NCBI RefSeq assembly: GCF_000001735.4
Contig: NC_003074.8
Span: 9,858,101 to 9,922,100 of the forward strand
Length of the DNA stretch: 64,000 bases
Source of the DNA: Arabidopsis thaliana
Taxonomy: Eukaryota; Streptophyta; Magnoliopsida; Brassicales; Brassicaceae
Direction: 5' to 3'
The position numbers and the translations under genes are program-made. The first letter of the stretch is position 1; each line of letters starts with the position of its first letter. Positions 22,001-38,345 of the stretch are shown piece by piece. The notes under the pieces are model-generated. The model saw nothing but the letters and a program-made list of their open reading frames with translations. It did not search any database and was not told where the DNA came from.

Positions 22001-23027
22001 AGTTAGAAACTCACATTAAAATAGCTTATCTGAGTTTTCACAAGTGGTCTAAGCGTTGCTTATATTATTGCACGGATATGGCTCATTCCCACCACCAAAT
22101 ATAGTCCAAATTTTTATGTAAATGCAAAGACATGGGATTTGGTGGTCTTAGACAACTTGTCTCCAATCTCCCTCCATCTGAGTTTTGTTTTTGAATTTTC
22201 TCTAACTATGTTAGAAAGATTTGTAGTGATGAAACTCTATCATATATCCAACACTTCCCCTAAAATTCCTTTGTTTCCGTTTCTGCATAATTCCAGTTAC
22301 ACACAAAGTGCATGCTTCCATCAAGTAATTCTAAGAAAAAAAACATTTGTTCACAAACTATGTCCTTTCATTTTTGGATGGTATAGTATATATGGGACAA
22401 CAAGTAACTAGCTTTTTTGGAGTGTCTTGTTCAAATTTTTGACATATAGATTTGTTTGTATACTACTATATTTCATTTAACTGCATGTTTTAATAAAGAA
22501 ACGGATCTTTGATACATATAGGTAGTTTTCTAAAATCATTTGGATCTTGTGTCATATCGATTTATTTGTACGTGAGATTTGGCTCACCTTGCCGATTAAA
22601 GTTCAACTAACGTTTTGTAAATTTTATTTTGTTTATAGAAATTCAGAAGAGGAAACTTGCACGTCTAAATTTGTATATAAATTATAAAAAGAGCCAAAAT
22701 GTCACTGTTGTTGGTGTTTATAACCTCTCTTACATACAAGTCGCAAGACAAGAGGTGGTAAATGTGGACTTTTATTCTAACTAATTAAATACAGAAAGAT
22801 GGAAAGACAACTTTCTCAATTACTCTCTCAAACACAAATTTGATTCTAACTAAATTAAAGTTCAACTAAAGTTAGTTTGTAAATTGTATTTTAGGTTATA
22901 CTTAATTGTACTACTTTTTCAAAAAATAAAAAACAACTATGTTTTTATTTTCCGCGCATCTTTGCTTGGACGAGTTTGTCGTGTTCTTATTATAAACAAA
23001 TAGAAAAACGGCAAAAGTCTCACACAA
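22001..23027. other. Spacer and 5' flank of the first PES-type gene
   Basis: No gene recognised. The part about 22620-22840 (GCACGTCTAAATTTGTAT, TGTCACTGTTGTTGG, GAGGTGGTAAAT blocks) recurs at about 27836-27990 and 33280-33490, marking the upstream flank of the PES duplication unit. The 90-codon frame at 22139-22411 is unassigned. Confidence 0.5.
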
Positions 23028-26000
23028 ATGGGGGTTACATTACTTCGCTCAATCTTCGGTCTCTGTGCCGTCTCATCTTCATCAAGAGTAACTGATTCCT
23101 ACTGTTCAACGAAGTCATATCTCCGACGACGCCGGACCTCCGCCTCGAAGCAACGACTCACGGAGATCAAATCCGTAACATCCACTCCTCCTCCTCCTTC
23201 TAGGGGTATTCGACGGAGACGGAAGAATAAAGATGAAAACGTGGTGCACAATCCGTATTCGAAGATGGAGATTTGCGAAAAAGCTTGTTGGATTTTTTGG
23301 AAGAAGCGAGAGATTTCGTTGGGGATGGAGGAGGTCCACCTCGTTGGTTCTCTCCGTTGGAATGCAGAGCTCAAGCGCCAAACTCTCCTCTCCTCCTCTT
23401 TTTACCTGGTTCGTCGTATAAAACTTCTTTCGCCTTTCTATCGTAATATGAATGAATGTGGTTCCCGATGGGATAACTTGATTACACTTCAAACAAGGTT
23501 GTTATACACGTGTAACCACTTGGATTCTTGGGCATTGGTCCGGGTGCTTTAGTTAGGGTGAGTTTGCGGTAACATGCAAAGAGCATGCTCACCTCCGGAT
23601 TAGTCGGACTTGACCTAGACACGATACCGATAATTCAGTTTGGTTGAGTTGGGATAGTTTCTACGGATTTGAAGTTTTATTTCATTTCCATGGAACACTG
23701 AAATGTTAAGTCTTTTCAAGTTAACAAAACTGAGAAAACTAAAACTTGCAGGGATCGATGGTACTGGACTAGGTCTCATTCGTCATCACAAGAAACTTGG
23801 GGAGTAAGTAATGTTTTATTCATTTCCTTTTAAGTTTCTATTAGCTTTTCCATTTTTTTAACATTCCCTGTATCTAAAAGAGTATGGTTTCTCTGTTTTT
23901 GTAACTTTGATTTTAGGTAGTTTAATTTTGAAGTATTGGCATGTTAAGGGATCTTTATTTTTAAAGTTTTTGTATTTGAATAGGATTTTTGATATATGGT
24001 GCCTTCACATTCCCGTCAGTGATCGTACTCCATTTAAAGGTGCCTTTATAACCCCCTTGTAAAGTACCAAAATGGCTATTTAACTGAGAAGATAGCTAAT
24101 CCCGTTTAAACCTTTTTGTGTGTGTTTAGACTTGGTGAAGCTTATTGAGAGGACAGTTAAGTCGGAGAACTACCGTTTCCCAAATAGACCAATATATTTA
24201 GTTGGAGAATCTATTGGAGCATGTCTTGCGTTAGATGTTGCAGCCAGGAATCCCAACGTTGATCTTGCTCTGATCTTGGTTAATCCAGGTACACAAGCTA
24301 GGTCTGCGGGATTCTTATTTTGTCGCAAAAGATAACAAAATATGTACATCTTTGTTCATCATAGACATTAATTAATTTTCGCAGCCACACATGTCAACAA
24401 CTTCATGTCAAAACCTCTATTAGGAATGCTTAATGTTTTACCTGATGGAATTCCCACACTATGGGAAGACGTATTTGGTTTTAAGCAAGGTACTTTTATT
24501 CCCTTATCATATTTTATCTTGAAATACAAGCTTGAGGTCCAAGTTGGATCTCTATAATGGTTTTGGCATCTTGTTGATTTTACTTAGAAAGCAGTGACGG
24601 CTGCAAAATTTTATATAATATCAGTTCCTTGTAGATGGAGAACTTATTAAAACATCAAAAACTTGTGTGTCTTCTTTGTTCCCGGGGCTTTATCATGTAG
24701 GCGCTCCATTGACTGGAATATTAGAAGCTATGTCAAATGAATTTTCCGTCCAGCGAATGGGCGGAGTGGGTGGAGGGATGCTAAGAGATCTCTTTGCAGT
24801 TTCAGCTAATCTTCCAGTAAGTGTTCCTTCTTAGGAACTCATGATTTATAGTTTATAGTCTATACATTTTCAGTTTCACTTATCAAGTTCTTAAGTAATG
24901 CGATCAACACCTTGAAAATTATATTTGTAGACTCTGAGTAGGATGTTCTCTAAGGACACACTCCTTTGGAAGCTTGAAATGCTAAAGTCTGCTATTGCTT
25001 CTGTAAATTCTCACATATACTCAGTTAAAGCTGAAACACTGATACTTCCAAGGTCCAATAATTTTCTTTGTTTTAGAAATTATGAATCTCTTTTACTTTT
25101 TTCAAAGAGATGTTATAGCTTGGAGCATAAGTGTAATGTGATTATGACTATCTCAGTGGACGTGATCAATGGCTGCTTAATGAGGAAGACATTGTCAGAT
25201 ACTCGCGAACGTTGCCAAATTGTATTGTACGTAAGCTTGATGACAATGGACAGTTTCCTCTTTTGGTAAGTGATCTCTCTTCATCCAATACTTAGGGTTT
25301 AATATTGATACTACTATTAAATAGGTTCTTGAAATCTCTATATATCCTACACTTCAATTATCTCTCTTTTACATCTCATGTTAGGAGGACAGCTTAGATC
25401 TGGCTACTATCATCAAGCTTACTTGTTTTTATCGCCGTGGGAAGTCACATGATTACGTTTCGGATTACATTAAACCTACCCCTTTTGAGTTACAACAACT
25501 ATTAGACGAGCACCGGTAAATGCCTTACTAATTGCTATATCTTAGTTTTTCTATATGTATATAGCAAAAGAAATAAAAGGTTATAGTAAATACTGAATGG
25601 AATATTCCGCGGTGCAGATTGCTAATGGATGCTATTTCACCTGTAATGCTATCAACTCTAGAAGACGGTACAATTGTCAGGAGCCTCGAAGGATAACCTT
25701 CGCAAGGGCCGGTTGTGTACGTTGGATATCACATGATATTGGGGTTTGAGTTGGCTCCAATGGTAGGTCTACTCTTAAAAGAGAGGAATATTCACATGCG
25801 TGGTTTGACACATCCGATGGTATTTATGTATATCCAAGACTCGTTAGTCGACCCGAAGATGTTTGACAAATATAAGTTAATGGGTGGAGTACCTGTCTCC
25901 AATATGAATTTCTACAAACTACTGCGTGAAAAGGCTCATGTGCTTTTGTATCCTGGAGGTGTCCGCGAAGCTTTGCATAGAAAGGTTATGTTATAATTAA

Positions 26001-26967
26001 TATATTGTTGCGTGGTGACCTTTTTCGGTTTCTACAATTTTGGATATTAGTGTTTTGGAGGTTAACATGTAAAGAGAGACTTCACAGGGTGAAGAATACA
26101 AGCTGTTTTGGCCAGAACAATCCGAGTTTGTGAGAGTTGCATCTAAATTTGGAGCGAAAATCGTTCCTTTCGGTGTTGTTGGAGAAGACGACATCTTTAA
26201 TGTAAGTATTCTCTACACAAATATTAAGATCTACACTATTTCATTTCCTTCATGTAACTATTTATCACATATGCATTATTAACCCCATTCAAATTTCTAC
26301 TTACTCGAGATTCTCGGCCTTTACCAAGATTGTTGCGTTATTCAACATCTTAAATGTGCGTTCAGCGAACCTCGGTTTCGAGTAACTTTGGCTTGAGACA
26401 TTGGCTGATTTTCAGATTGTATTGGACTCCAATGATCAAAGGAACATCCCTATCCTAAAAGATTTAATGGAAAAAGCAACAAAGGACGCTGGCAACCTAA
26501 GGTGTTTTATGTTTGATCACACTATATATATTCTCATTTATAAACACATATGTGATTTTGAACGTCATAATTGTCAGGGAAGGAGACGAAAGCGAATTGG
26601 GAAACCAAGATTGCTATAATCCCAGGACTTGTACCTAAAATTCCAGGGCGGTTCTACTATTACTTTGGCAAACCAATAGACTTAGCAGGTATCTATATAA
26701 TCTAAGTGTATGCTCTCTACATCAAATCACTGACCTCATTACTTGCAATAATGGCGGGGTTTTTTTTCCATGGCAGGTAAGGAGAAGGAGCTGAAAGACA
26801 AAGAAAAGGCACAAGAGGTTTACTTGCAAGCAAAGTCTGAGGTCGAACAATGCATTGCATACTTAAAAATGAAAAGAGAGTGTGATCCTTACAGACAATT
26901 GTTGCCAAGGATGATGTATCAAGCCTCACATGGTTGGTCTTGTGAAATCCCAACGTTTGATCTCTAA
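23028..26967 (+). pseudogene. Broken paralogue of PES2 (esterase/acyltransferase family)
   Basis: All 14 exons of the downstream PES2 gene can be traced in order: 23028-23410, 23752-23803, 23984-24039, 24130-24288, 24385-24489, 24701-24816, 24931-25052, 25157-25265, 25385-25515, 25618-25984, 26088-26201, 26416-26501, 26578-26688 and 26777-26967. Splice signals are conserved. Three lesions are visible relative to PES2: exon 1 loses frame after NPYSK (a small deletion near 23270-23285, net length 383 versus 382); exon 10 has an in-frame TAA (25693-25695, EG-stop-PSQGP); and exon 13 has one extra base near 26620. Exon 5 is two codons shorter. Motifs that survive include GESIGACLALDVAARNP and LLYPGGVREALHRK. 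I recall an annotated gene here (At3g26820), so alternative models may exist, but full-length protein is unlikely. Confidence 0.8.
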
Positions 26968-26999: not shown

Positions 27000-27189
27000 T
27001 AATCATATGATGTTTAGAGGTTCTAAGATTCTTTAGAGATCTAAAGATCTTTTATTTGTTCATCGAAAATAAGACAAGATTATTTAACTGAATGTACATG
27101 ACATGAATCTATCTATTACTTTCGTAAGATTACAAGTTTTTATTTATGTTTTGAATGTAATGTTAAACTAGACTCAAATAAATATTACC
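27000..27189 (+). repeat. PES 3' flank, copy 1
   Basis: The block TTCTAAGATTCTTTAGAGAT, AAGATCTTT, AAAATAAGACAAGATTATTT just after the first PES-type gene recurs at 32910 and 38094. The flank continues with GAATGCAGTCGTATG and AAAACTCACAACCGAAGAAG (about 27550-27690). It marks the downstream end of the PES duplication unit. Confidence 0.7.
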
Positions 27190-27194
27190 ACAAA

Positions 27195-27455
27195 TCTGAC
27201 ATTCTTTTGAAAAATCTGGCATGCTTTGGAAAATATGGCATTCTTATATCAAGTGTGAGATATTCTTTTGAAAAATCTGACATCTTTTGAAAAATATGAC
27301 ATGATTACATCAAGTGTGACTGTGACATTCTTTAGAAATATATGTGACATAACTCTTTTGAAAAATCTGACATTCTTTTGAAAAATATGTATCATAAGTT
27401 TTTTTAGTACACCAAGTGTGACATATATTCTTTTGAAAAGTCTGAAAATATTCTA
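27195..27455. repeat. Diverged minisatellite in the PES 3' flank
   Basis: At least seven imperfect copies of a unit like TCTGACATTCTTTTGAAAAA run head to tail, with ATCAAGTGTGAC/CCAAGTGTGAC inserts between some copies. The copies differ in length and sequence, so the array is old. The other two PES 3' flanks lack the expansion. Confidence 0.75.
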
Positions 27456-27835
27456 AGAATTTGAGACTTTAGTTTCCAGAGTCAAACCAAACTTGGAGGC
27501 CTTTACATGCATCTCTTATCACCAGTCGCTCGGATTTATGAAAGTTATAATGAATGCAGTCGTATGTAATCTTTCTTTAGGATCAAACAACAATTTCAAT
27601 TACTCTGTCTAAAATTCTTGATTTACATGCGATCAAGGTATACTGTATATAGGTAATTTGTTAAAAATGCAAAACTCACAACCGAAGAAGATTTATGTTA
27701 TTTTGGTTCTTAAAGTACGTAGATAGTTTTCTAAAATCAAATTAAAAATCTAAGAAAATATACAACGTTAAGAAAGAAAAAACAAAGACACACACACACA
27801 TACATGTGAACACCCTCCCGATTGGAGTTAAAACT

Positions 27836-27990
27836 AATTTAAGTTTCGAAATTAAAACAAGATCCAAAAGGTCACTGTTGTTGCGGTCTTTACATCCAAA
27901 AAATGTATTTATTTGTGCTCTACTCTTTTAAATACAACAGGAGGTGTGCAATATGGACTTTCTCAATTATGTTGTATCCTACCTATATAA
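27836..27990 (+). repeat. Orphan copy of the PES 5' flank, left of PAD3
   Basis: AACAAGATCCAAAAGGTCACT, ATTGTTG/CTGTTGTTG, CTCTACTCT, GAGGTG and GGACTTTCTCAATTATG match the region 33320-33480 upstream of PES2 and 22660-22830 upstream of the first PES copy. No PES coding sequence follows; homology ends near 27990 and AT-rich DNA then leads to PAD3. Confidence 0.65.
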
Positions 27991-29540
27991 TGAAATAAAA
28001 TCCAACGGAAGAAGGCCATTAATTCTCCTCCACGTGCGTTATGTCTTTTATTTGTTTTCTATGGGGCTCTATTATGTTTGGTCAGCGCAACCTAATTATT
28101 ATTTTTTTGTATCATCAAACAGTTGTGTTTTTATTCTTCCACGATAGTTCAATCTTGTTTTGTGTTTTTATTCATCAAAGATTCAATTATCTTTTAAACA
28201 CCTAATTTTCATACAAAATATAACTTTTTTTTTTATAAGATGATAAGACTTTTGGTATTCCTTCTATTATAATTGTGATTCCACTCTTGTGTATTGTAAT
28301 TTAAAAACTTAAAATTTTATATTTTAGACTAATATATCGTCAATATTAACCACTTCAAATATTTATTATAAAATCTACTTCGGCATTTTCAAACGTACCC
28401 ACTTCCGATTCTATGCAGTTTAACTTATTACACTAATTTTTATTTTGATGTGTTTTTATTTATTATGAAATTATTACAATAATCTAGTAAAGTTAAATTA
28501 TAATTCACCAAAAGTTTGCGGTTGCCAAATATTCTTCATTATTATTATTTTTCATATCTCAAACAAAGTAGTTATGCAACCTTGCTTAAAATATATGATC
28601 CCATAAATTTTCAAAACCGGTTTTATATGCAAAGTACATGTCAAAACGTTATCTTATTTACATCCATTTACTAATCAAATATCTATTTTACCACAAAAGG
28701 TGTGTTTTATACCCTATCATGTTTTACTCTTGAGATATGTTCTTTGACACCACCCACAAAATATCTCTACGAAATACGAAGCCACTATATGTCTCTTTAA
28801 TTTCACTTTTTATAGTTTTTTTCACCGCTAAAATTGTTGACTAAAAAATATATTGCATAAAAATAATTGATAATATATTTATAAGAAAAACTATGATAAG
28901 AAAAAATATAATCGGTTGAAATGAGTCATGACTAACAATAATTAAAGGTTAGGAAATTAAAAGAAAATAAATTCTGAAATAACTAAAAAAAAAAAAATAG
29001 AAGATGATGATATATGGATCCCTATACTAATATTTTGGAAGTACATTGAAAAACTAACTTTCAAAGACCCAATTAATTAAGCTCATTAAGGATAAACATG
29101 TTAAATACTAACTTATGGACATTAATTAAATTAAAAATTATAAAACGAAAATAAATTGATGACAAAAAAAAAACTATGAATTTTCTTATTAGGATTTGTA
29201 ATCTACTTTCTTGAAAAAAATTGAAGTTTACTGACGGCTTCCTTTTTTTGGAAACTCCAAAATAACAAAACATATGAAGAAGTTTTGGAATAGCCTTTGA
29301 CTCAACAACTTTAACAATAGAAAGAAAACATGTTTAATTAATGTTCATGCACTTCGTCTCGGCTGCCCCTTGTGGCCTGTGGGGTTGCCGGGTTGGCTTA
29401 GCTTGAGACGACCCAATACTGAATTTGTTAGCTCGGTCAGTGAAGTCTACATGCATGATACAAAAAGATTGACTAGTGTTTAAGTTTTTTTTTTTTTTTT
29501 TTTTTTTTTTCATAAATGGTAGTGTCTCATATTAGAAATG
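27991..29540. other. AT-rich DNA and distal PAD3 upstream region
   Basis: No gene recognised. It includes a possible Helitron 5'-end fragment from 29019 (TCCCTATACTAATATTTTGG..., very like the 5' end of the Helitron at 31950), a GC-rich islet 29354-29411 bounded by TCGTCTC and GAGACGA, and a 26-base T run at 29485-29510. Confidence 0.5.
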
Positions 29541-29824
29541 GTAGTTTGAAAAGTATTCAGTTTGTTTGTTCACTTTGGATTATTTGATTTTGGTTTTGTT
29601 AATTGAATCAGTTTTGTTTGAAAAGTATTCACTTTTGAAAAGTGTTCACTTTAAAAAGTTTTGTTTGAAAAGTGTTCACTTTGAAAAGTATTCTTTGAGA
29701 AGTGCTCAGTTTTGGTTTGTCCACTTACGATTATTATTCACAAGCTACAGCGGATAGTAGTGACTAGTGACTTATGACTTTGAATAAAGAATTTCCCTCT
29801 AAAGGAATGAATACATTATAAATA
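29297..29824 (+). promoter_or_regulatory. PAD3 promoter: W-boxes and TATA box
   Basis: TATAAATA at 29817-29824 lies 66 bases before the PAD3 ATG, a normal spacing for a start site around 29850. W-box cores TTGACT occur at 29297-29302 and 29469-29474, and another at 28837-28842. PAD3 is a known WRKY33 target induced by pathogens (established knowledge). Which of these boxes is used cannot be read from sequence. Confidence 0.6.
29544..29712. repeat. Short tandem repeat in the PAD3 promoter
   Basis: Imperfect copies of TTTGAAAAGTGTTCACT (variants AAGTATTCACT, AAGTATTCAGT, AAGTGCTCAG) are repeated about six to seven times with T-rich spacers between 29544 and 29712. The array lies between the W-boxes and the TATA box. 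Confidence 0.7.
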
Positions 29825-29889
29825 GATTATTAACCTAAGCTTGATAGAGAAGACAGAACAAAAAAAAACACAAGAACAGGGCAAGGAAA

Positions 29890-31460
29890 ATGTCGGTTTT
29901 CCTCTGTTTCCTCGTCCTCTTACCCCTGATCTTAATCTTCTTGAACGTTTTGAAACCTTCGAAATATAAGCTTCCTCCGGGTCCAAAGAAGCTTCCCATC
30001 ATCGGAAACTTACACCAACGCAGGACACTACATCCGAGGAATCGCCGTAATCTCGCCGAAATGTATGGACCAGTGGCGCTTCTCCAATACGGATTCGTCC
30101 CCGTGGTCGCGATCTCTTCGAAAGAAGCAGCAGAGGAAGTGCTAAAGATCAACGATCTTGAGTGTTGTAGTCGACCAGAGGCGGCCGGAATGAGAGCAAC
30201 TTTTTACAACTTCAAAGACATCGGGATGGCACCCTTCGGTGACGAGTGGAGTCTGATGCGGAAGCTCTCGGTGGTCGAGCTCTTCAGCGTGAAAAAGCTT
30301 CAATCTTTCAAGTATATCATAGAGGAAGAGAATAACTTGTGTGTCAAGAAACTCTCTGAGTTTGCTACGAGACAATCTCCGGTGAATCTTGAGAGAGCCA
30401 TTTTCACTTTAGTCGGAAATATAGTGTGTCGTATCGGGTACGGGATAAATCTCTATGAGTGTGATTTCTTTGAAGCTGATAGAGTCGTGGATCTTGTGCT
30501 AAAGGCTGAAGCGGTCATAAGAGAAACTGTGTTCTCTGATTTCTTTCCCGGAAGAATCGGTAGGTTCATCGACTGTATCTCCGGTCAGAACAGGAGATTG
30601 AAGAATAATTTCTCGGTAGTAGACACTTTCTTTCAGAATGTTCTTAACGAGCATCTTAAGCCTGGAAGAGAGAGCTCTACTATTGTTGACTTGATGATCG
30701 ATATGAAGAAGAAGCAAGAGAACGATGGAGATGCTCTCAAGTTCACCACTGATCATCTCAAAGGAATGATCTCGGTAAGCCTTTAGTCTTTTTCAAGTTA
30801 TATATATTCCACAGTGGTTAAAAAATCTTGCAACAACATACCAATATATTTGTGACTTTGTGTTTATGTCAGGACATATTTGTAGCAGGGATTGGTGGAG
30901 TCGCTGGCATAACACTATGGGGAATGACCGAGCTGATCAGAAACCCAAGAGTGATGAAGAAAGTGCAAGACGAGATTCGGACAACACTTGGGGACAAGAA
31001 GGAGAGAATCAAAGAAGAAGATCTAAACCAACTTCACTACTTTAAGCTCGTGGTCAAGGAGACATTAAGGTTACATCCAACAACTCCACTCTTGCTCCCA
31101 AGACAGACAATGTCTCATATCAAGATTCAAGGCTACGATGTTCCTGCGAAAACACAGATCTTAGTCAACGTTTATGCGATGGGTCGTGATCCAAAACTCT
31201 GGGAAAACGCAGATGAGTTTAACCCTGACAGGTTTCTCGACAGTTCCGTTGATTTTAAAGGAAAAAACTACGAGTTTATACCGTTTGGATCTGGTAGGAG
31301 AATATGTCCAGGGATGACAATGGGTACCATACTTGTTGAGATGGCATTGTTGAATTTGCTTTACTTCTTCGATTGGGGATTGGCGAAGCAGGAGGAAGCC
31401 AAAGAGATCATCAATGGGGAAGAAAATTTTCTAGCCTTCTTTCAAGTTCTTCACCACTGA
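29890..31460 (+). CDS. PAD3: Cytochrome P450 CYP71B15, camalexin synthase
   Basis: ER-anchored P450 for the last steps of the phytoalexin camalexin, converting cysteine-indole-3-acetonitrile to dihydrocamalexic acid and then camalexin. Two exons, 29890-30774 and 30873-31460, give 490 residues, the remembered CYP71B15 length. Visible features are an N-terminal membrane anchor (residues 2-19), the hinge PPGPKKLPIIGN (about 31-42), KETLRLHP for the ExxR motif, FNPDRF, and the haem-binding FGSGRRICPG near residue 430. The I-helix reads AGIGGVAGIT: the acidic and Thr residues of the usual (A/G)Gx(D/E)T(T/S) oxygen-activation motif are replaced, which suits an enzyme doing unusual C-S cyclisation and decarboxylation (inference). 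It lies between two PES genes, inside remnants of the PES unit, away from other CYP71B genes. Confidence 0.97.
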
Positions 31461-31949
31461 ATATATGGTTTGGTTCCTATCAAAAAAAATATATATATAT
31501 GGTTTTGTTATGTACACTAGTTTCTAAGATAATAAATGAAAATTGTATCTGCTTTTGATTTAGTTTCAATAAAAATAAAAAGTGATGATCCAGTTGGAGT
31601 CAGCTTCTAAATATCTGTATTGTTAATGGTGGAACATTATATCCATATTTTTAATTTCATAATTAATGTTAAAATCTTTCACTTGTGTTTGGCTATATGA
31701 TATTTGATATAGTAGAGAGAATTATTTGTAAAGTTGTTTAGATATGGATATAAGAAATGGCATTAATTGTAATTCTTTTGAAAATGAAGATTTATTTCAA
31801 ATTTTCACTTCAAAAATACTAATATAGATTAAAATTGTGCTACAAAAATGGTCATTATATCACATAATACACACTATGATATGTGAATATATAATACCAT
31901 ATTTAAACAATGTTATCATGGTCACCCTATTATAGCTCCAACAAATACA
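31461..31949. other. PAD3 3' region and AT-rich spacer
   Basis: Probable PAD3 3' UTR for the first one to two hundred bases (AATAAA-like at about 31568), then AT-rich spacer up to the Helitron. No other feature seen. Confidence 0.5.
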
Positions 31950-32874
31950 TCCTATACTATTATTTGGAAAGTACATAATAAAAAATAACCTTATTTTTTG
32001 TAAGTAATTACATAGGTATGCCATTAGAAATAAAATTTTAAAGAGTTAATTAATTTAATTTAATTAGAAAAACGAAAAACATTATTAATTTCCAAAAAAG
32101 TAACCAATCAATATCAACATATAAGATTTGATATCTAAATTTTAATTAATTTAATTTAGTTAGAAAAATAAAATACATTATTAATTTCCAAAAAAGTAAC
32201 CAACTAAAATCAACAAATTAGATTTGATATCTAAATTAACATGTTAATTTTTTATTAATTATTATACTTCACCTCTCATCTTTATATGATTCTATTTTTG
32301 CGAAAGAAATAATATCATCATATCATCAGTATAAAAAAATAATTAGAGTTTTTTCGCATATTCCATGATTTGAATTTTTAAAAACGAATAGAAACTGTTC
32401 AATACATGAAAATATATTATAACGGGTCAAAAATAGATTTAAGAAAACTTTTGACTGAGTAACGGGTCATAATTTGAATATTTATATTTAATTTCATACA
32501 TATTATTTTGAAAATTTATAATCTTATATACTATAATAATTAATAACATATTAGATTTTTTTTTATGTGTATGATGTAATTTAATTTTTAGTACAAGCTG
32601 GAAAATCCTACAATTGACGGGTTTAGATCGATATGAATACAAGATGGTATACTACAGGTGAAACGCTAAAATTAACAATCAAAATACAAGTGTATAATCT
32701 TAAAACACTAAACAATATAAATAATATCAACAAAACATATACAACTCGCAGTGTACTATACATTTAAAATCAAATAAAATAATATCATATATTTATAAAT
32801 CATCTTTACAAAAAATGTTTTTAGTTTAGCTAAAATATAAGTCTACCTGCGGTATACCGCGGGTTAATATCTAG
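31950..32874 (+). mobile_element. Non-autonomous Helitron (AtREP-like)
   Basis: The 5' end TCCTATACTATTATTTGG starts at 31950 after an A. The 3' end is CTAG (32871-32874) followed by T, as expected for insertion between A and T without target duplication. Ten bases before CTAG is the typical 3' hairpin: the 12-base palindrome GCGGTATACCGC (32849-32860) inside CCTGCGGTATACCGCGGG. The 925-bp interior is AT-rich with two near-direct repeats (about 32045-32130 and 32140-32230) and no Rep/helicase coding, so it needed helper proteins to move. Confidence 0.88.
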
Positions 32875-32894
32875 TTGTTTATGAAAACGGTATC

Positions 32895-33215
32895 ACAACA
32901 ATTTTTTATAAGGCATCATATTTAGATGTTCTAAGATTCTTTAGAGATTTAAGATCTTTATTTGTCCATGGAAAATAAGACGAGATTATTTAGTTGAATG
33001 TTCATGAGCCTATCTATTATTCCGGAAGGTGTCAAGTTTAACTAACTTGAGTATAAAGGTTTTATGATTCTAGTCATATGTGATGTGGCTCTAGCAGCAC
33101 AAGTATTTCAACTATACTGTTTGAAATAATGGATTCTTCAGGTACATGTTGAAGGTAGAGAGGTAAAATTTTCATTGTAAAACTCACAACCGAAGAAGAG
33201 CAAATTACACCTTCA
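32895..33215 (+). repeat. Orphan copy of the PES 3' flank, right of PAD3
   Basis: GTTCTAAGATTCTTTAGAGAT, AAGATCTTTATTTGT, TAAAGGTTTTATGA, AGTCATATGTGATGTG, ATGGATTCTTCA and AAAACTCACAACCGAAGAAG match, in the same order, the flank after PES2 (38094-38340) and in part the flank after the first PES copy (27020-27690). Here there is no PES gene upstream, only the Helitron and then PAD3. Confidence 0.75.
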
Positions 33216-34707
33216 AAATACACAACGTTAAAAAAAAAATGACATGTACGTAAGTTTGTAAATTTTGTTTTGTTTTGTAGAAATTTCAGAAGACGAATCT
33301 TGCACGTCTAAATTTGTATCTAAAATTATAACAAGATCCAAAAGGTCACTATTGTTGGTGTTTATAAATGCTTTCTTTTCATTTTTGCTCTAAACTCTCT
33401 AAAATACATGAGGTGGTAAATATGGACTTTTAGTCTAAACTAGATACACACAGATGCGAACAAAACTATCTCAATTATGCTGGAGTTTTGCCTTTCCTAA
33501 ACTTTGTTATAGATTTTCTAGATGTTAGACACAAATAAGATAATATCCTCTAATAGTATATGTCTTCTGTTTCCATTAGCATTATTATTACCAAACCTTC
33601 ATTTATTCCCTGTTGAGTTTTGATCCAATTTTTCCTGTTTCTTTTTAATCTATAATAGTCCTTTTTATTTATCTATCTAAAGAGAATTCTCATAGTGGCA
33701 GCAAGTAAGGATTATTTAGTTTATTGTTATACTTAAAAGTGTAAAGTATAATAATTTAAGTCGATCGAACCAGGGCTTAGATTGATGTCGGCTGGTAGAT
33801 TATAGTGTCCCACGTCAGTTGTCATTTGTAAGGTTGCAATTCATTTAAAATTTGAAAAATTGATATTACCATACACACATTCTATGCATAATGTGCATTA
33901 TCATTTTTTGGACAACGATGTTATTACTTTGCTAGTATATTGTTCTAATTAATCAATCAGTTTACAACTTTGACTAGCCATACAAGAATATTGACTTATC
34001 ATTAACTTGACGATTTCTTACTTCATAAAAATTAATTAGTCAAACGAATATCTATTTCTTAATTTGTAAATTGTTTGGTAAATTCTCTAATATTTATACT
34101 GTTTTCTAAGATTACAAACAACTCTCTTATTTTCATGCATGATTTACACGTGAATAAGTAACAACAACATAGGTCCGCAATGATACCCAAAGCATTTCCT
34201 GACCATTCACACCATTCAGGTCTAGTACTTGTGCTCTTATTCAATCATATATGTTATCACTAGATTTGTTTCTTTATTTATCCCTTTTAATCAAATTGTT
34301 CACCAGTTTCTACGGCTCAAAAACCAAAAAAAATCATAACACATGACACATGTGACATGTCAAATATATATATTTTTATCCAAAAAACGACATGCTAAAG
34401 TTTTATTTTCCAACAGAAAATTCCTTTTTTTGTCTTTTTATTTTTTATATAACTAAGAAATTTTCCAACATAAGTTTTTTTTCTTTCAATAATAACTACT
34501 ATTACTATATTTATTTCATATATTGTCTATTTTTAACCAATAATTACCACATGTGACATGTCCAATATCGTAATTGTATTTTTTTCAAAAAGGAAATACT
34601 AAAGTTTTAATTTCCGCGCACTTTCTTGGCTCTTTCTCGGAATAGTTTGTCGTATTCCGACTATAAACAAAAAAACAAAAACTCTTTTCTTTTAGAGCTT
34701 CTCACAA
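33216..34707 (+). other. PES2 upstream region
   Basis: Contains the PES 5' flank copy (about 33280-33490) and otherwise AT-rich DNA. A diverged direct repeat pair (34346-34411 and 34548-34616) shares CACATGTGACATGTC, a run of A, and ACTAAAGTTTTAATTTCC. CATGTG/ACATGTGAC motifs occur in both. No gene recognised. Confidence 0.5.
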
Positions 34708-37700
34708 ATGGCTGTTACAGTACTTCCTTCCGTCTCCGGTCTCTCTGCCGTCGCATCTTCATCGAACCTACGACGTCTGACCTCCGCCTCGAACCATCGA
34801 CTCACGGCGATAAAATCCGTAACATCTACTTCTTCTCCTCCTACCCCTTCTAGTGGTGTTCAACGGAGACGGAAGAATAATGATGAAAACAGAGCCACGG
34901 TGGCGAAGGTGGTGGAGAATCCGTATTCGAAAGTGGAGGCGGCGCGTCCGGATTTGCAAAAGAGGTTGTCAGATTTTTTGGAAGAAGCTAGAGAGTTCGT
35001 CGGAGATGGAGGAGGTCCACCTCGTTGGTTCTCTCCATTGGAGTGTGGCGCTCAAGCTACAAACTCTCCTCTTCTCCTATACTTACCTGGTTCGTCCGCT
35101 ATATCTTCTTTAGCCTTCCAATTTCTATGGATTTAGATTTTAGTTCCATTCCATGGAACTCTGAAACATTAAGCTATTCAAGTTAACAAAAATTTGCAGG
35201 GATTGATGGAACTGGACTAGGTCTTATTCGCCATCACAAGAAACTTGGGGAGTAAGTAATATGGTTCCTCTGTTTCTGGAAAATTCCTCTGTTTTCTCTT
35301 TTTGGTTTGTCCAAAAAATTTGATTTTAGGTAGCTTTTGAAGTAAGTGATCTTTATTTATATTGTCTTTGAATAGGATTTTTGATATATGGTGCCTGCAC
35401 ATACCAGTCAGTGATCGTACTCCTGTTAAAGGTACCTTCTCGTTGCCCTTTCGAAGCACTACCGAGAAGATAGTTAATGCGAGTTAAAGCCTTATTGTTT
35501 GTGTTCTGTTGTATTCAGACTTGGTGAAGCTTATTGAGGAAACCGTTAAGTCAGAGAACTTTCGTTTACCAAATAGACCAATATATTTAGTTGGAGAATC
35601 TATTGGAGCATGTCTTGCTTTAGATGTTGCAGCCAGAAATCCCAACATCGATCTTTCTCTGATCTTGGTTAATCCAGGTACAGAAGTTCGCCTTATTTTG
35701 TCGGTGAATGTCACGAATGTTTCTCATCATAGACATTGTTTTGTTGCAGCCACACATGTCAACAACTTCATGGTGCAACCTCTATCAGGAATGCTAAATG
35801 TTTTACCCGATGGTCTTCCAACGCTATTGGAAGATATCTTTGATTTTGGTTTTAAGCAAGGTACACTTTTGTTCTCTTCTCATATTCTATCTTGAATCAT
35901 AAATTAAACCAACTAATCAGTTCCTTGTAGATCAAGAACTTATTGAAACGTGACAAAAATGTATCTCTTTGTTACGGTAGGCGATCCATTAACTGGGATG
36001 TTAGACGCTTTGTCGAATGAATTTTCTGTCCAGCGAATGGGCGGAGTAGGTGGAGGGATGCTAAGAGATGTCCTTGCTGTTTCAGCTAATCTTCCTGTAA
36101 GTATTCCTTCATAGAAACTTATGATATATGCGTTTTTCAGTTTATAGCCTACATATTTTCAAGTGTTCATCTAGTATTGTGATCACAATATATTTTCAGA
36201 CTCTTAGTAGGATGTTCCCTAAGGACACACTGCTTTGGAAGCTGGAAATGCTTAAGTATGCTATTGCTTCTGTGAACTCTCACATATACTCAGTCAGAGC
36301 GGAAACACTCATACTTCTGAGGTCCAAAAATTCTGAATATATAAGATTTGTAAAGAGGTATTAAGTGTAAGTGCTTATCTGGTTATGACTATTGCAGTGG
36401 ACGCGATCATTGGCTCCTGAAGGAGGAAGACATTGACAGATACTCGCGCACGTTGCCAAAATGTATTGTCCGTAAGCTCGACGACAATGGACAGTTTCCC
36501 CTTTTGGTTAGTGATATCTCTTCATCCAATACTGATACTAGTTTTCTCATGTCAATTGAGAATATCGGATCATTCATAACTTACACTTCAACTATCTCTT
36601 TTACATCTCATATTAGGAGGATGGTGTAGATCTTGCTACTATCATCAAGTGTACTTGTTTTTATCGCCGTGGGAAGTCTCACGATCACATTACGGATTAC
36701 ATTATGCCTACCACATTTGAGTTAAAACAACAAGTAGACGATCACCGGTAAGCTCTGAGTTATATCAAACAAAATCAGAATATCAAGTAAAAAGTTATAG
36801 GGGATACTGAATGATATATTCCGCAGTGCAGATTGCTAATGGATGGTACTTCTCCTGTAATGCTGTCAACTCTAGAAGACGGCACAGTTGTAAGGAGCCT
36901 CGAAGGATTACCTTCAGAGGGACCTGTTTTGTACGTTGGCTATCACATGATATTGGGATTTGAGTTAGCTCCAATGGTAATTCAACTCATGACAGAGAGG
37001 AACATTCACCTGCGGGGTTTGGCACATCCCATGCTATTTAAGAATCTCCAAGACTCATTAGTCGACACGAAGATGTTTGACAAATATAAGATAATGGGTG
37101 GAGTTCCAGTCTCCCATTTCAATATCTACAAACTACTGCGTGAAAAGGCTCATGTGCTTCTGTATCCTGGAGGTGTCCGTGAAGCTTTGCATAGAAAAGT
37201 GATATATAGTTTGTAAACTTTTTCCGGGTTTCTGCATTCTTGAAACTTGTTATTTTAGAGGCTTTAATGAACAAACAAAATTTGCAGGGTGAAGAATACA
37301 AGCTGTTTTGGCCAGAACGGTCCGAGTTTGTGAGAGTTGCATCTAAATTTGGAGCCAAAATTGTTCCTTTTGGTGTTGTTGGAGAAGACGATATCTGCGA
37401 AGTAAGCTTTCTCATATGCTATACATTATAAATATCCGAACCTCGGTTTGGCGTAACTTTGGTTTGGACATTGAATGATTCTCAGATTGTCCTGGATTCT
37501 AATGATCAAAGGAACATCCCTATCCTCAAGGATTTAATGGAAAAGGCAACAAAGGACGCTGGCAACATAAGGTGTTGCATCACATACTCTATTTATAATT
37601 TGTTCTCATAATACTTCTTTCAAGTAATATTCATATGAACATTGATTTTGAACGTCAGGGAAGGCGATGAGAGCGAATTGGGAAACCAAGAGTGCTATTT

Positions 37701-38054
37701 CCCAGGACTTGTACCTAAGATTCCAGGGCGGTTCTACTATTACTTTGGCAAACCAATAGAAACAGCAGGTATGTACTTAGTCTTAATGTATGCTCTCTAC
37801 TTCAAATCACTGACCTCTATACTTGCAAGTTGCAATAATGGTGGTTTTTCTTTTTCATGGCAGGTAAGGAGAAAGAACTAAAAGACAAAGAGAAGGCACA
37901 AGAGCTCTACTTGCAAGTTAAATCTGAGGTAGAACAATGCATTGACTATTTAAAAGTGAAAAGAGAGAGTGATCCCTACAGACACTTATTGCCTAGGATG
38001 TTGTATCAGGCCTCACATGGTTGGTCTTCTGAAATTCCAACGTTTGATCTCTAA
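34708..38054 (+). CDS. PES2: Phytyl ester synthase 2, plastid esterase/acyltransferase
   Basis: Plastid enzyme that esterifies phytol from chlorophyll breakdown with fatty acids and can also make triacylglycerol during senescence or nitrogen stress. Fourteen exons fit: 34708-35089, 35200-35251, 35376-35431, 35519-35677, 35750-35860, 35981-36096, 36200-36321, 36398-36506, 36617-36747, 36832-37198, 37288-37401, 37486-37571, 37659-37768 and 37864-38054. They give 701 residues with every phase closing. The N-terminus is rich in Ser/Arg and lacks acidic residues, as in a chloroplast transit peptide. The alpha/beta-hydrolase half has YLPGIDGTG and the nucleophile elbow GESIGA. The acyltransferase-like half has YVGYHMILG, followed by LLYPGGVREALHRK and PKIPGRFYYYFGKPI. 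The name separates it from PES1 on chromosome 1. The upstream paralogue is broken. Confidence 0.95.
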
Positions 38055-38093
38055 GTCTCTCTTTGTACCCACCCATTTAATCATGATGAATAG

Positions 38094-38345
38094 AGGTTCT
38101 AAGATTCTTTGGAGATCTAAGATCTTTATATGTTCAAGAAAAGTAAGACAAAAGATCATTTAATTGAATGTGATTGTACATGAACCTACCTATAAAGGTT
38201 TTATGAATGCAGTCATATGTGATGTGACTTTAGGTTCATACATGCGTTTCAACTACAGTTTAAAAGGATGGATTCTTCATTTACATGTTATGAAAGTAGA
38301 GGTAAATTCTGCATTGTAAAACTCACCACAGAAGAAGAACGATTC
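38094..38345 (+). repeat. PES 3' flank, copy 3
   Basis: Third copy of the block described at 27000 and 32895, directly after the PES2 stop. It extends through AAAACTCACCACAGAAGAAG near 38320, close to the 3' end of the convergent gene. Confidence 0.7.

What the first reader, a model, noticed from the sequence alone, without database searches (positions are those of the whole stretch)
27836..33215. PAD3 sits exactly where a third PES gene should be
The PES 5' flank occurs at 22.6, 27.84 and 33.3 kb and the PES 3' flank at 27.0, 32.9 and 38.1 kb. Around PAD3, a 5' flank lies on the left and a 3' flank on the right, but no PES coding sequence is between them. The simplest reading is that a third tandem PES copy was replaced or deleted and CYP71B15 landed in its place, with a Helitron (31950-32874) abutting the orphan 3' flank. 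That would tie the birth of the camalexin locus to a specific rearrangement.
Basis: partly seen in the sequence, partly recalled or inferred. Interest (0 to 1): 0.7.

Follow-up and report, generated by a model that had tools for sequence, protein, structure and literature searches.

The report
PAD3's arrival site inside PES array
The plant gene that makes the defence chemical camalexin looks like a relocated copy of a chromosome 1 P450 gene that sits on chromosome 3 in a gap framed by the two ends of a neighbouring, repeated lipid-enzyme gene, so traces of its arrival can still be read.

Summary
PES 5' flanks lie at 22614-22822, 27849-~27985 and 33255-33477; 3' flanks at 27007-27139 plus 27541-27691, 32912-33199 and 38091-38338. 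The middle flanks match nothing else in the genome. The two junctions beside PAD3 align with each other, so PAD3 lies between direct repeats of the PES intergenic junction. No PES coding relic was detected between them.

PAD3's sister is not a chromosome 3 CYP71B gene but CYP71B28 on chromosome 1 (bootstrap 100), intron included. Synonymous divergence is 0.36 for that pair and 0.34 for the two PES genes: indistinguishable. PAD3's protein then changed faster than its sister's (80 versus 24 unique residues).

The flanks do not prove that a third PES gene stood there. Insertion of PAD3 between two PES genes with duplication of the ~0.6 kb junction gives the same picture, and direct repeats matching the target are documented around transposed Arabidopsis genes. 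I hold the two readings nearly even (0.45 versus 0.42). The Helitron (31950-32874) looks like a later bystander. The outgroup sequences that would decide were not available.

The parts
22614..22822 (+). PES 5' flank, left copy (A5)
   Evidence: 78% to 33255-33477
23028..26967 (+). Left PES gene (AT3G26820, name recalled), broken in this genome
   Evidence: exons matched to the right copy; in-frame TAA at 25694-25696; frame change in exon 1 and near 26617
27007..27691 (+). PES 3' flank, left copy (A3), interrupted by about 0.4 kb of degenerate short repeats
27849..27985 (+). PES 5' flank, middle copy (M5); firm to 27961, probable to about 27985; left edge of the slot
28425..28994 (.). Old dispersed-repeat remnant upstream of PAD3
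   Evidence: 14 other partial matches in the genome, 67-86%
29890..31460 (+). PAD3 (CYP71B15, name recalled): exons 29890-30774 and 30873-31460, 490 aa; homology to the chromosome 1 sister runs 29848-31475, intron included
31606..31829 (.). Old dispersed-repeat remnant downstream of PAD3
   Evidence: 8 other matches at 7 places, 71-87%
31950..32874 (+). Helitron-like element, read as a later insertion: TC start, near-palindrome before the end, CTAG end, between A and T
32912..33199 (+). PES 3' flank, middle copy (M3); right edge of the slot
33255..33477 (+). PES 5' flank, right copy (B5)
34708..38054 (+). Right PES gene (PES2, AT3G26840, position recalled); no internal stop in 15 compared exon blocks
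38091..38338 (+). PES 3' flank, right copy (B3)

Best explanation
PAD3 is a DNA-level transposed duplicate of the chromosome 1 gene CYP71B28. It occupies a slot in the PES tandem array on chromosome 3 whose edges are the 5' end and the 3' end of a PES unit. Shown: the flanks, their restriction to this locus, the aligned junctions, the lack of detectable PES coding DNA, the chromosome 1 sister, the equal synonymous ages, and PAD3's faster protein change. Inferred: the array once held three PES units, and the body of the middle one was lost in a clean replacement when, or before, the CYP71B28 copy integrated; PAD3 then evolved its camalexin role, the left PES decayed, and a Helitron landed beside the right edge. 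I put the shown core at about 0.9; the confidence below is for the core plus the third unit.
For: Flanks and aligned junctions, restricted to this locus. No body relic despite good power, so the body is gone as a whole, not faded. No displaced third copy: outside this locus the right PES gene matches only a chromosome 5 PES-like cluster (66-91%, exon pieces) and short stretches on C2 and C3. PAD3+CYP71B28: 100% ultrafast bootstrap on 5 genes; 81.6% DNA identity through the intron. dS 0.360 (0.283-0.452) for PAD3-CYP71B28 and 0.339 (0.280-0.420) for left-right PES. The middle flanks look as old as the left/right split: 3' flank K2P A-M 0.279, A-B 0.236, M-B 0.227 (three alignment settings agree); 5' flank A-M 0.496, A-B 0.296, M-B 0.295 in two of three settings. 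So there is no sign that M3 is a young copy of A3, as junction duplication long after the A/B split would predict. The array expands readily: B. rapa A02 lists four PES2 homologues after AFB2, one a 402-bp model (PMC8138439, passages).
Against: No detectable piece of a third PES body survives, and this model needs one more event than junction duplication. A third unit made by ordinary unequal crossing-over also predicts M3 closest to A3, which is not seen. The confidence intervals of the 3' distances overlap, and one of three settings gave 5' distances A-M 0.474, A-B 0.195, M-B 0.505; an earlier, looser alignment gave 3' 0.353/0.267/0.281 and 5' 0.660/0.269/0.568 for A-M/A-B/M-B. Without an outgroup, slow evolution of the working right copy cannot be told from shared ancestry. 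The repeat here (~0.6 kb) is longer than those in PMC2869330, but that study's automated search was set to 30-400 bp and its manual one to about 500 bp either side, so size is weak evidence. The B. rapa copies may be independent duplications.
Confidence: 0.45

Rival explanations
1. No third PES gene ever existed. A CYP71B28 copy inserted into the intergenic junction between two tandem PES genes, and about 0.6 kb of that junction (3' flank plus 5' flank) was duplicated on either side, as in other transposed Arabidopsis genes with target-matching direct repeats.
For: One event explains both edges. No PES body relic was detected. [quoted passage not shown] lyrata target site; 3 of its 9 parent-known cases came from tandem arrays, as here.
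Against: It predicts A3-M3 to be the closest 3' pair, but that is the most distant of the three (0.279 against 0.236 and 0.227, intervals overlapping). The insertion would have to follow the PES duplication almost at once.
Confidence: 0.42
2. One rearrangement episode made the whole layout: template switching during break repair copied the PES unit in tandem and pulled in the CYP71B28 copy between partial PES ends.
For: PAD3-CYP71B28 and left-right PES have the same dS within error, and the three units are close to equidistant.
Against: It needs several template switches; equal ages within wide error bars do not prove simultaneity; no junction with microhomology could be examined, because the right edge is disturbed by the Helitron.
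Confidence: 0.08
3. A Helitron or another mobile element captured and carried PAD3.
For: Repeat remnants lie on both sides (28425-28994 and 31606-31829) and a Helitron lies downstream.
Against: The Helitron has its own two ends (31950 and 32874) and PAD3 lies outside them. The genome hit lists of the two remnants share no place, so they are not evidently two ends of one element.
Confidence: 0.03

Closest known systems
Transposed Arabidopsis genes flanked by direct repeats of the target site (Woodhouse, Pedersen and Freeling 2010, PMC2869330; abstract, section 8 and passages seen)
   Same: Gene with a parent elsewhere, parent in a tandem array, landing site bounded by direct repeats of non-transposon, gene-associated sequence native to the target.
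   Different: Repeats are longer (~0.6 kb) and farther from the gene (1905 bp upstream, 1452 bp downstream); they are the two ends of a tandem gene unit; the event looks much older than the A. thaliana/A. lyrata split which that paper studied. The gene is not named in its main text ('AT3G268' found 0 times); its supplementary tables were not seen.
CYP71B28 / CYP71B29 / CYP71B7 tandem cluster on chromosome 1 (names recalled from position)
   Same: Same gene structure; PAD3 is sister to CYP71B28, 81.6% DNA identity through the intron.
   Different: Different chromosome and neighbours; no shared noncoding DNA beyond 42 bp before the start and 15 bp after the stop, though the cluster members share little more with each other; PAD3's protein changed faster.
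Tandem PES array at the same place in Brassica rapa A02 (PMC8138439 and PMC9111173, passages seen)
   Same: PES2 homologues follow AFB2, repeated in tandem.
   Different: Four PES2 homologues and no PAD3 homologue in the B. rapa table; the second paper's table ends at its mapping interval and shows two.

Membership tests
Transposed gene with target-derived flanking direct repeats | A related parent gene at another place in the genome | tested here: met
   CYP71B28 on chromosome 1
Transposed gene with target-derived flanking direct repeats | Direct repeats over 30 bp on both sides of the gene | tested here: met
   27541-27985 and 33055-33500 align; at 1.9 and 1.5 kb from the gene, beyond the ~500 bp which the paper inspected by hand
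Transposed gene with target-derived flanking direct repeats | Repeat sequence present once at the empty orthologous site | not testable with these tools
   no other plant genome held
Transposed gene with target-derived flanking direct repeats | Gene absent from the orthologous place in a relative | tested here: inconclusive
   only a published B. rapa gene table lists none; sequence not seen
PES gene (third tandem copy) | PES 5' and 3' flanking sequence in the right order | tested here: met
PES gene (third tandem copy) | PES exons between the flanks | tested here: not met
   nothing above the shuffled level; power 175 of 200 at 100 bp, 200 of 200 at 300 bp
Retrocopy | Intron absent relative to the parent | tested here: not met
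   homology runs through the intron
Helitron-captured gene | Gene lies between Helitron ends | tested here: not met
   complete Helitron at 31950-32874, PAD3 outside it

The most novel reading that the evidence does not exclude
The camalexin locus was born in one datable rearrangement: a CYP71B28 copy from chromosome 1 replaced the body of the middle gene of a PES triplet in the ancestor of camalexin-making crucifers, and the two PES ends are the preserved scar.
Probability: 0.25. Interest if true: 0.65.

Novelty: new member of a known kind. Interest (0 to 1): 0.45.

Why it matters
Camalexin is described as restricted to the Camelineae (PMC6671987, passage), and Eutrema lacks a clear CYP71B15 orthologue, its closest homologue being 66.7% identical (PMC4464140). 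If the scar around PAD3 is shared by camalexin makers and missing elsewhere, the origin of the pathway's last enzyme becomes one traceable event: a known parent (CYP71B28), a known landing site, an age (dS about 0.35) and a burst of protein change afterwards. That makes the question how a new phytoalexin enzyme arose directly testable by comparing genomes and assaying the parent enzyme.

Tried and rejected
Weak continuation of the middle 5' flank towards the PES start codon: 28073-28178 against 22887-22996 scores p 0.024-0.026 on shuffles. Against real AT-matched windows the fractions were 0.014-0.059 over four scorings, and the same stretch against the right PES is at background (30). Not claimed. 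A leftward continuation of the middle 3' flank was not found (p 0.20-0.85).

A PES relic inside the slot: none. A displaced third PES: none. A B28/B29 chimera, as a recombination circle between neighbours might give: PAD3 is closer to B28 in 9 of 10 coding windows; the tenth differs by 0.015, so no chimera is claimed. Transposed-segment limits from noncoding homology: not usable, since cluster members themselves share little beyond the gene.

Literature: 10 searches. None of the listings or passages seen described PAD3's flanks or its CYP71B28 origin; 'CYP71B15' with 'CYP71B28' gave 0 papers and 'AT3G26820' with 'AT3G26840' gave 0. The library lacks most subscription papers, so this is not proof of novelty. 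PMC6379040 was searched for five terms with 0 found; PMC12027767, PMC12502057 and PMC8801980 gave passages only and no locus comparison.

Full report
What was checked. The window lies at C3:9858101-9922100 of a 119.66 Mb genome in 7 contigs. I take it as Arabidopsis thaliana from recall; the gene names PAD3, CYP71B28/29/7, AT3G26820 and AT3G26840 at these positions are recalled as well, while 'AT3G26840 = PES2' and 'AT3G26810 = AFB2' are printed in PMC8138439.

The flanks are real. Self-comparison gives three 5' flanks and three 3' flanks (coordinates in parts). The middle pair frames PAD3. The 3'-flank/5'-flank junction left of PAD3 and the one right of it align with each other across the boundary. 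They are the same tandem junction present twice, as direct repeats. The right copy is about 589 bp and the left about 981 bp, the difference being mostly a short-repeat stretch. Searches of the whole genome with the middle flanks return only this locus.

Nothing of a PES body was detected in between. Nucleotide and translated comparison of both PES genes with 27986-32911 gives scores at the level of shuffled sequence; the shuffles were run for the right gene only. At the divergence of these genes the same method finds 175 of 200 random 100-bp pieces and 200 of 200 300-bp pieces, so the body is absent as a whole, not faded. Outside this locus the right PES gene matches a chromosome 5 PES-like cluster and short stretches on C2 and C3, so no displaced third copy was found.

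PAD3 came from chromosome 1. Among the matches to PAD3 exon 1, the three best are the neighbouring genes at C1:4461846, 4463983 and 4467272 (73, 68 and 60% protein identity); the best chromosome 3 match is 56%. DNA homology to the first runs 29848-31475, from 42 bp before the start codon to 15 bp past the stop and through the intron, so this was a DNA-level copy. A five-gene tree joins PAD3 and CYP71B28 with 100% ultrafast bootstrap.

Ages. dS is 0.360 (0.283-0.452) for PAD3-CYP71B28 and 0.339 (0.280-0.420) for left-right PES; fourfold-site distances are 0.272 (0.174-0.377) and 0.345 (0.263-0.437). The two duplications cannot be told apart in time. With CYP71B29 as outgroup, PAD3 has 80 unique residues and CYP71B28 has 24 among 487 sites (p 3e-8), while synonymous third positions are even, 22 and 17 (p 0.52). 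Protein change sped up on the PAD3 branch after the copy was made.

Which history? Two readings fit. (a) A third PES unit stood here and lost its body. (b) The CYP71B28 copy inserted between two PES genes and the junction was duplicated. Distances among the flanks are nearly star-like: 3' A-M 0.279, A-B 0.236, M-B 0.227; 5' A-M 0.496, A-B 0.296, M-B 0.295 (two of three settings for the 5' end; the third gives 0.474, 0.195, 0.505). The middle flanks are thus not evidently younger than the left/right split, and M3 is not closest to A3 as (b) predicts. But a third unit born by unequal crossing-over predicts the same closeness, the intervals overlap, and the working right copy may simply evolve slowly. 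[quoted passage not shown] its text says 13 of these 18 had repeats present at the A. lyrata target site, although its two tables mark 14 rows 'yes'. I hold (a) 0.45 and (b) 0.42.

The Helitron. 31950-32874 has the ends of a Helitron and dozens of relatives (40 long matches at 84-91%, from 40 scored of 470 candidates). Its closest relative is far more similar than the flanks are to each other, so it most likely arrived later; PAD3 lies outside it.

Outgroups. A published B. rapa table lists four PES2 homologues in a row after AFB2 and an AT5G14030 homologue, one only 402 bp long, and no AT3G26830 homologue (PMC8138439, passages). This shows that the array expands readily and that PAD3 is not listed there, but not that a third unit is ancestral. 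Eutrema is reported to lack a clear CYP71B15 orthologue (PMC4464140, passages), and camalexin is stated to be restricted to the Camelineae (PMC6671987, passage). Both fit an origin of PAD3 after the split from those lineages.

Verdict. Observation confirmed; interpretation partly supported.

Noticed in passing
23028-26967: The left PES gene is broken in this genome: an in-frame TAA at 25694-25696 in a conserved exon, a frame change in exon 1 between the start codon and 23270, and a one-base length difference near 26617 against the right copy.
   Followed up: yes
33500-34570: About 1 kb lies between the 5' flank and the gene in the right PES copy where the left copy has about 80 bp; an insertion or a deletion of unknown origin.
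   Followed up: no
28425-28994: Old dispersed-repeat remnant in the PAD3 upstream region (14 other partial genome matches). One of three W-box-like TTGACT sites between 27986 and 29890 (28837) falls in it.
   Followed up: partly
29225-29375: A 151-bp stretch of the PAD3 upstream region has a single other genome match, C3:18655764-18655905 (79%), about 1.5 kb from a bHLH-like open reading frame (L020 6423-7118).
   Followed up: partly
27192-27445: Degenerate short direct repeats interrupt the left PES 3' flank.
   Followed up: no
32046-32237: A 96-bp tandem duplication inside the Helitron (91%).
   Followed up: no
29545-29735: Short degenerate repeats just upstream of PAD3.
   Followed up: no
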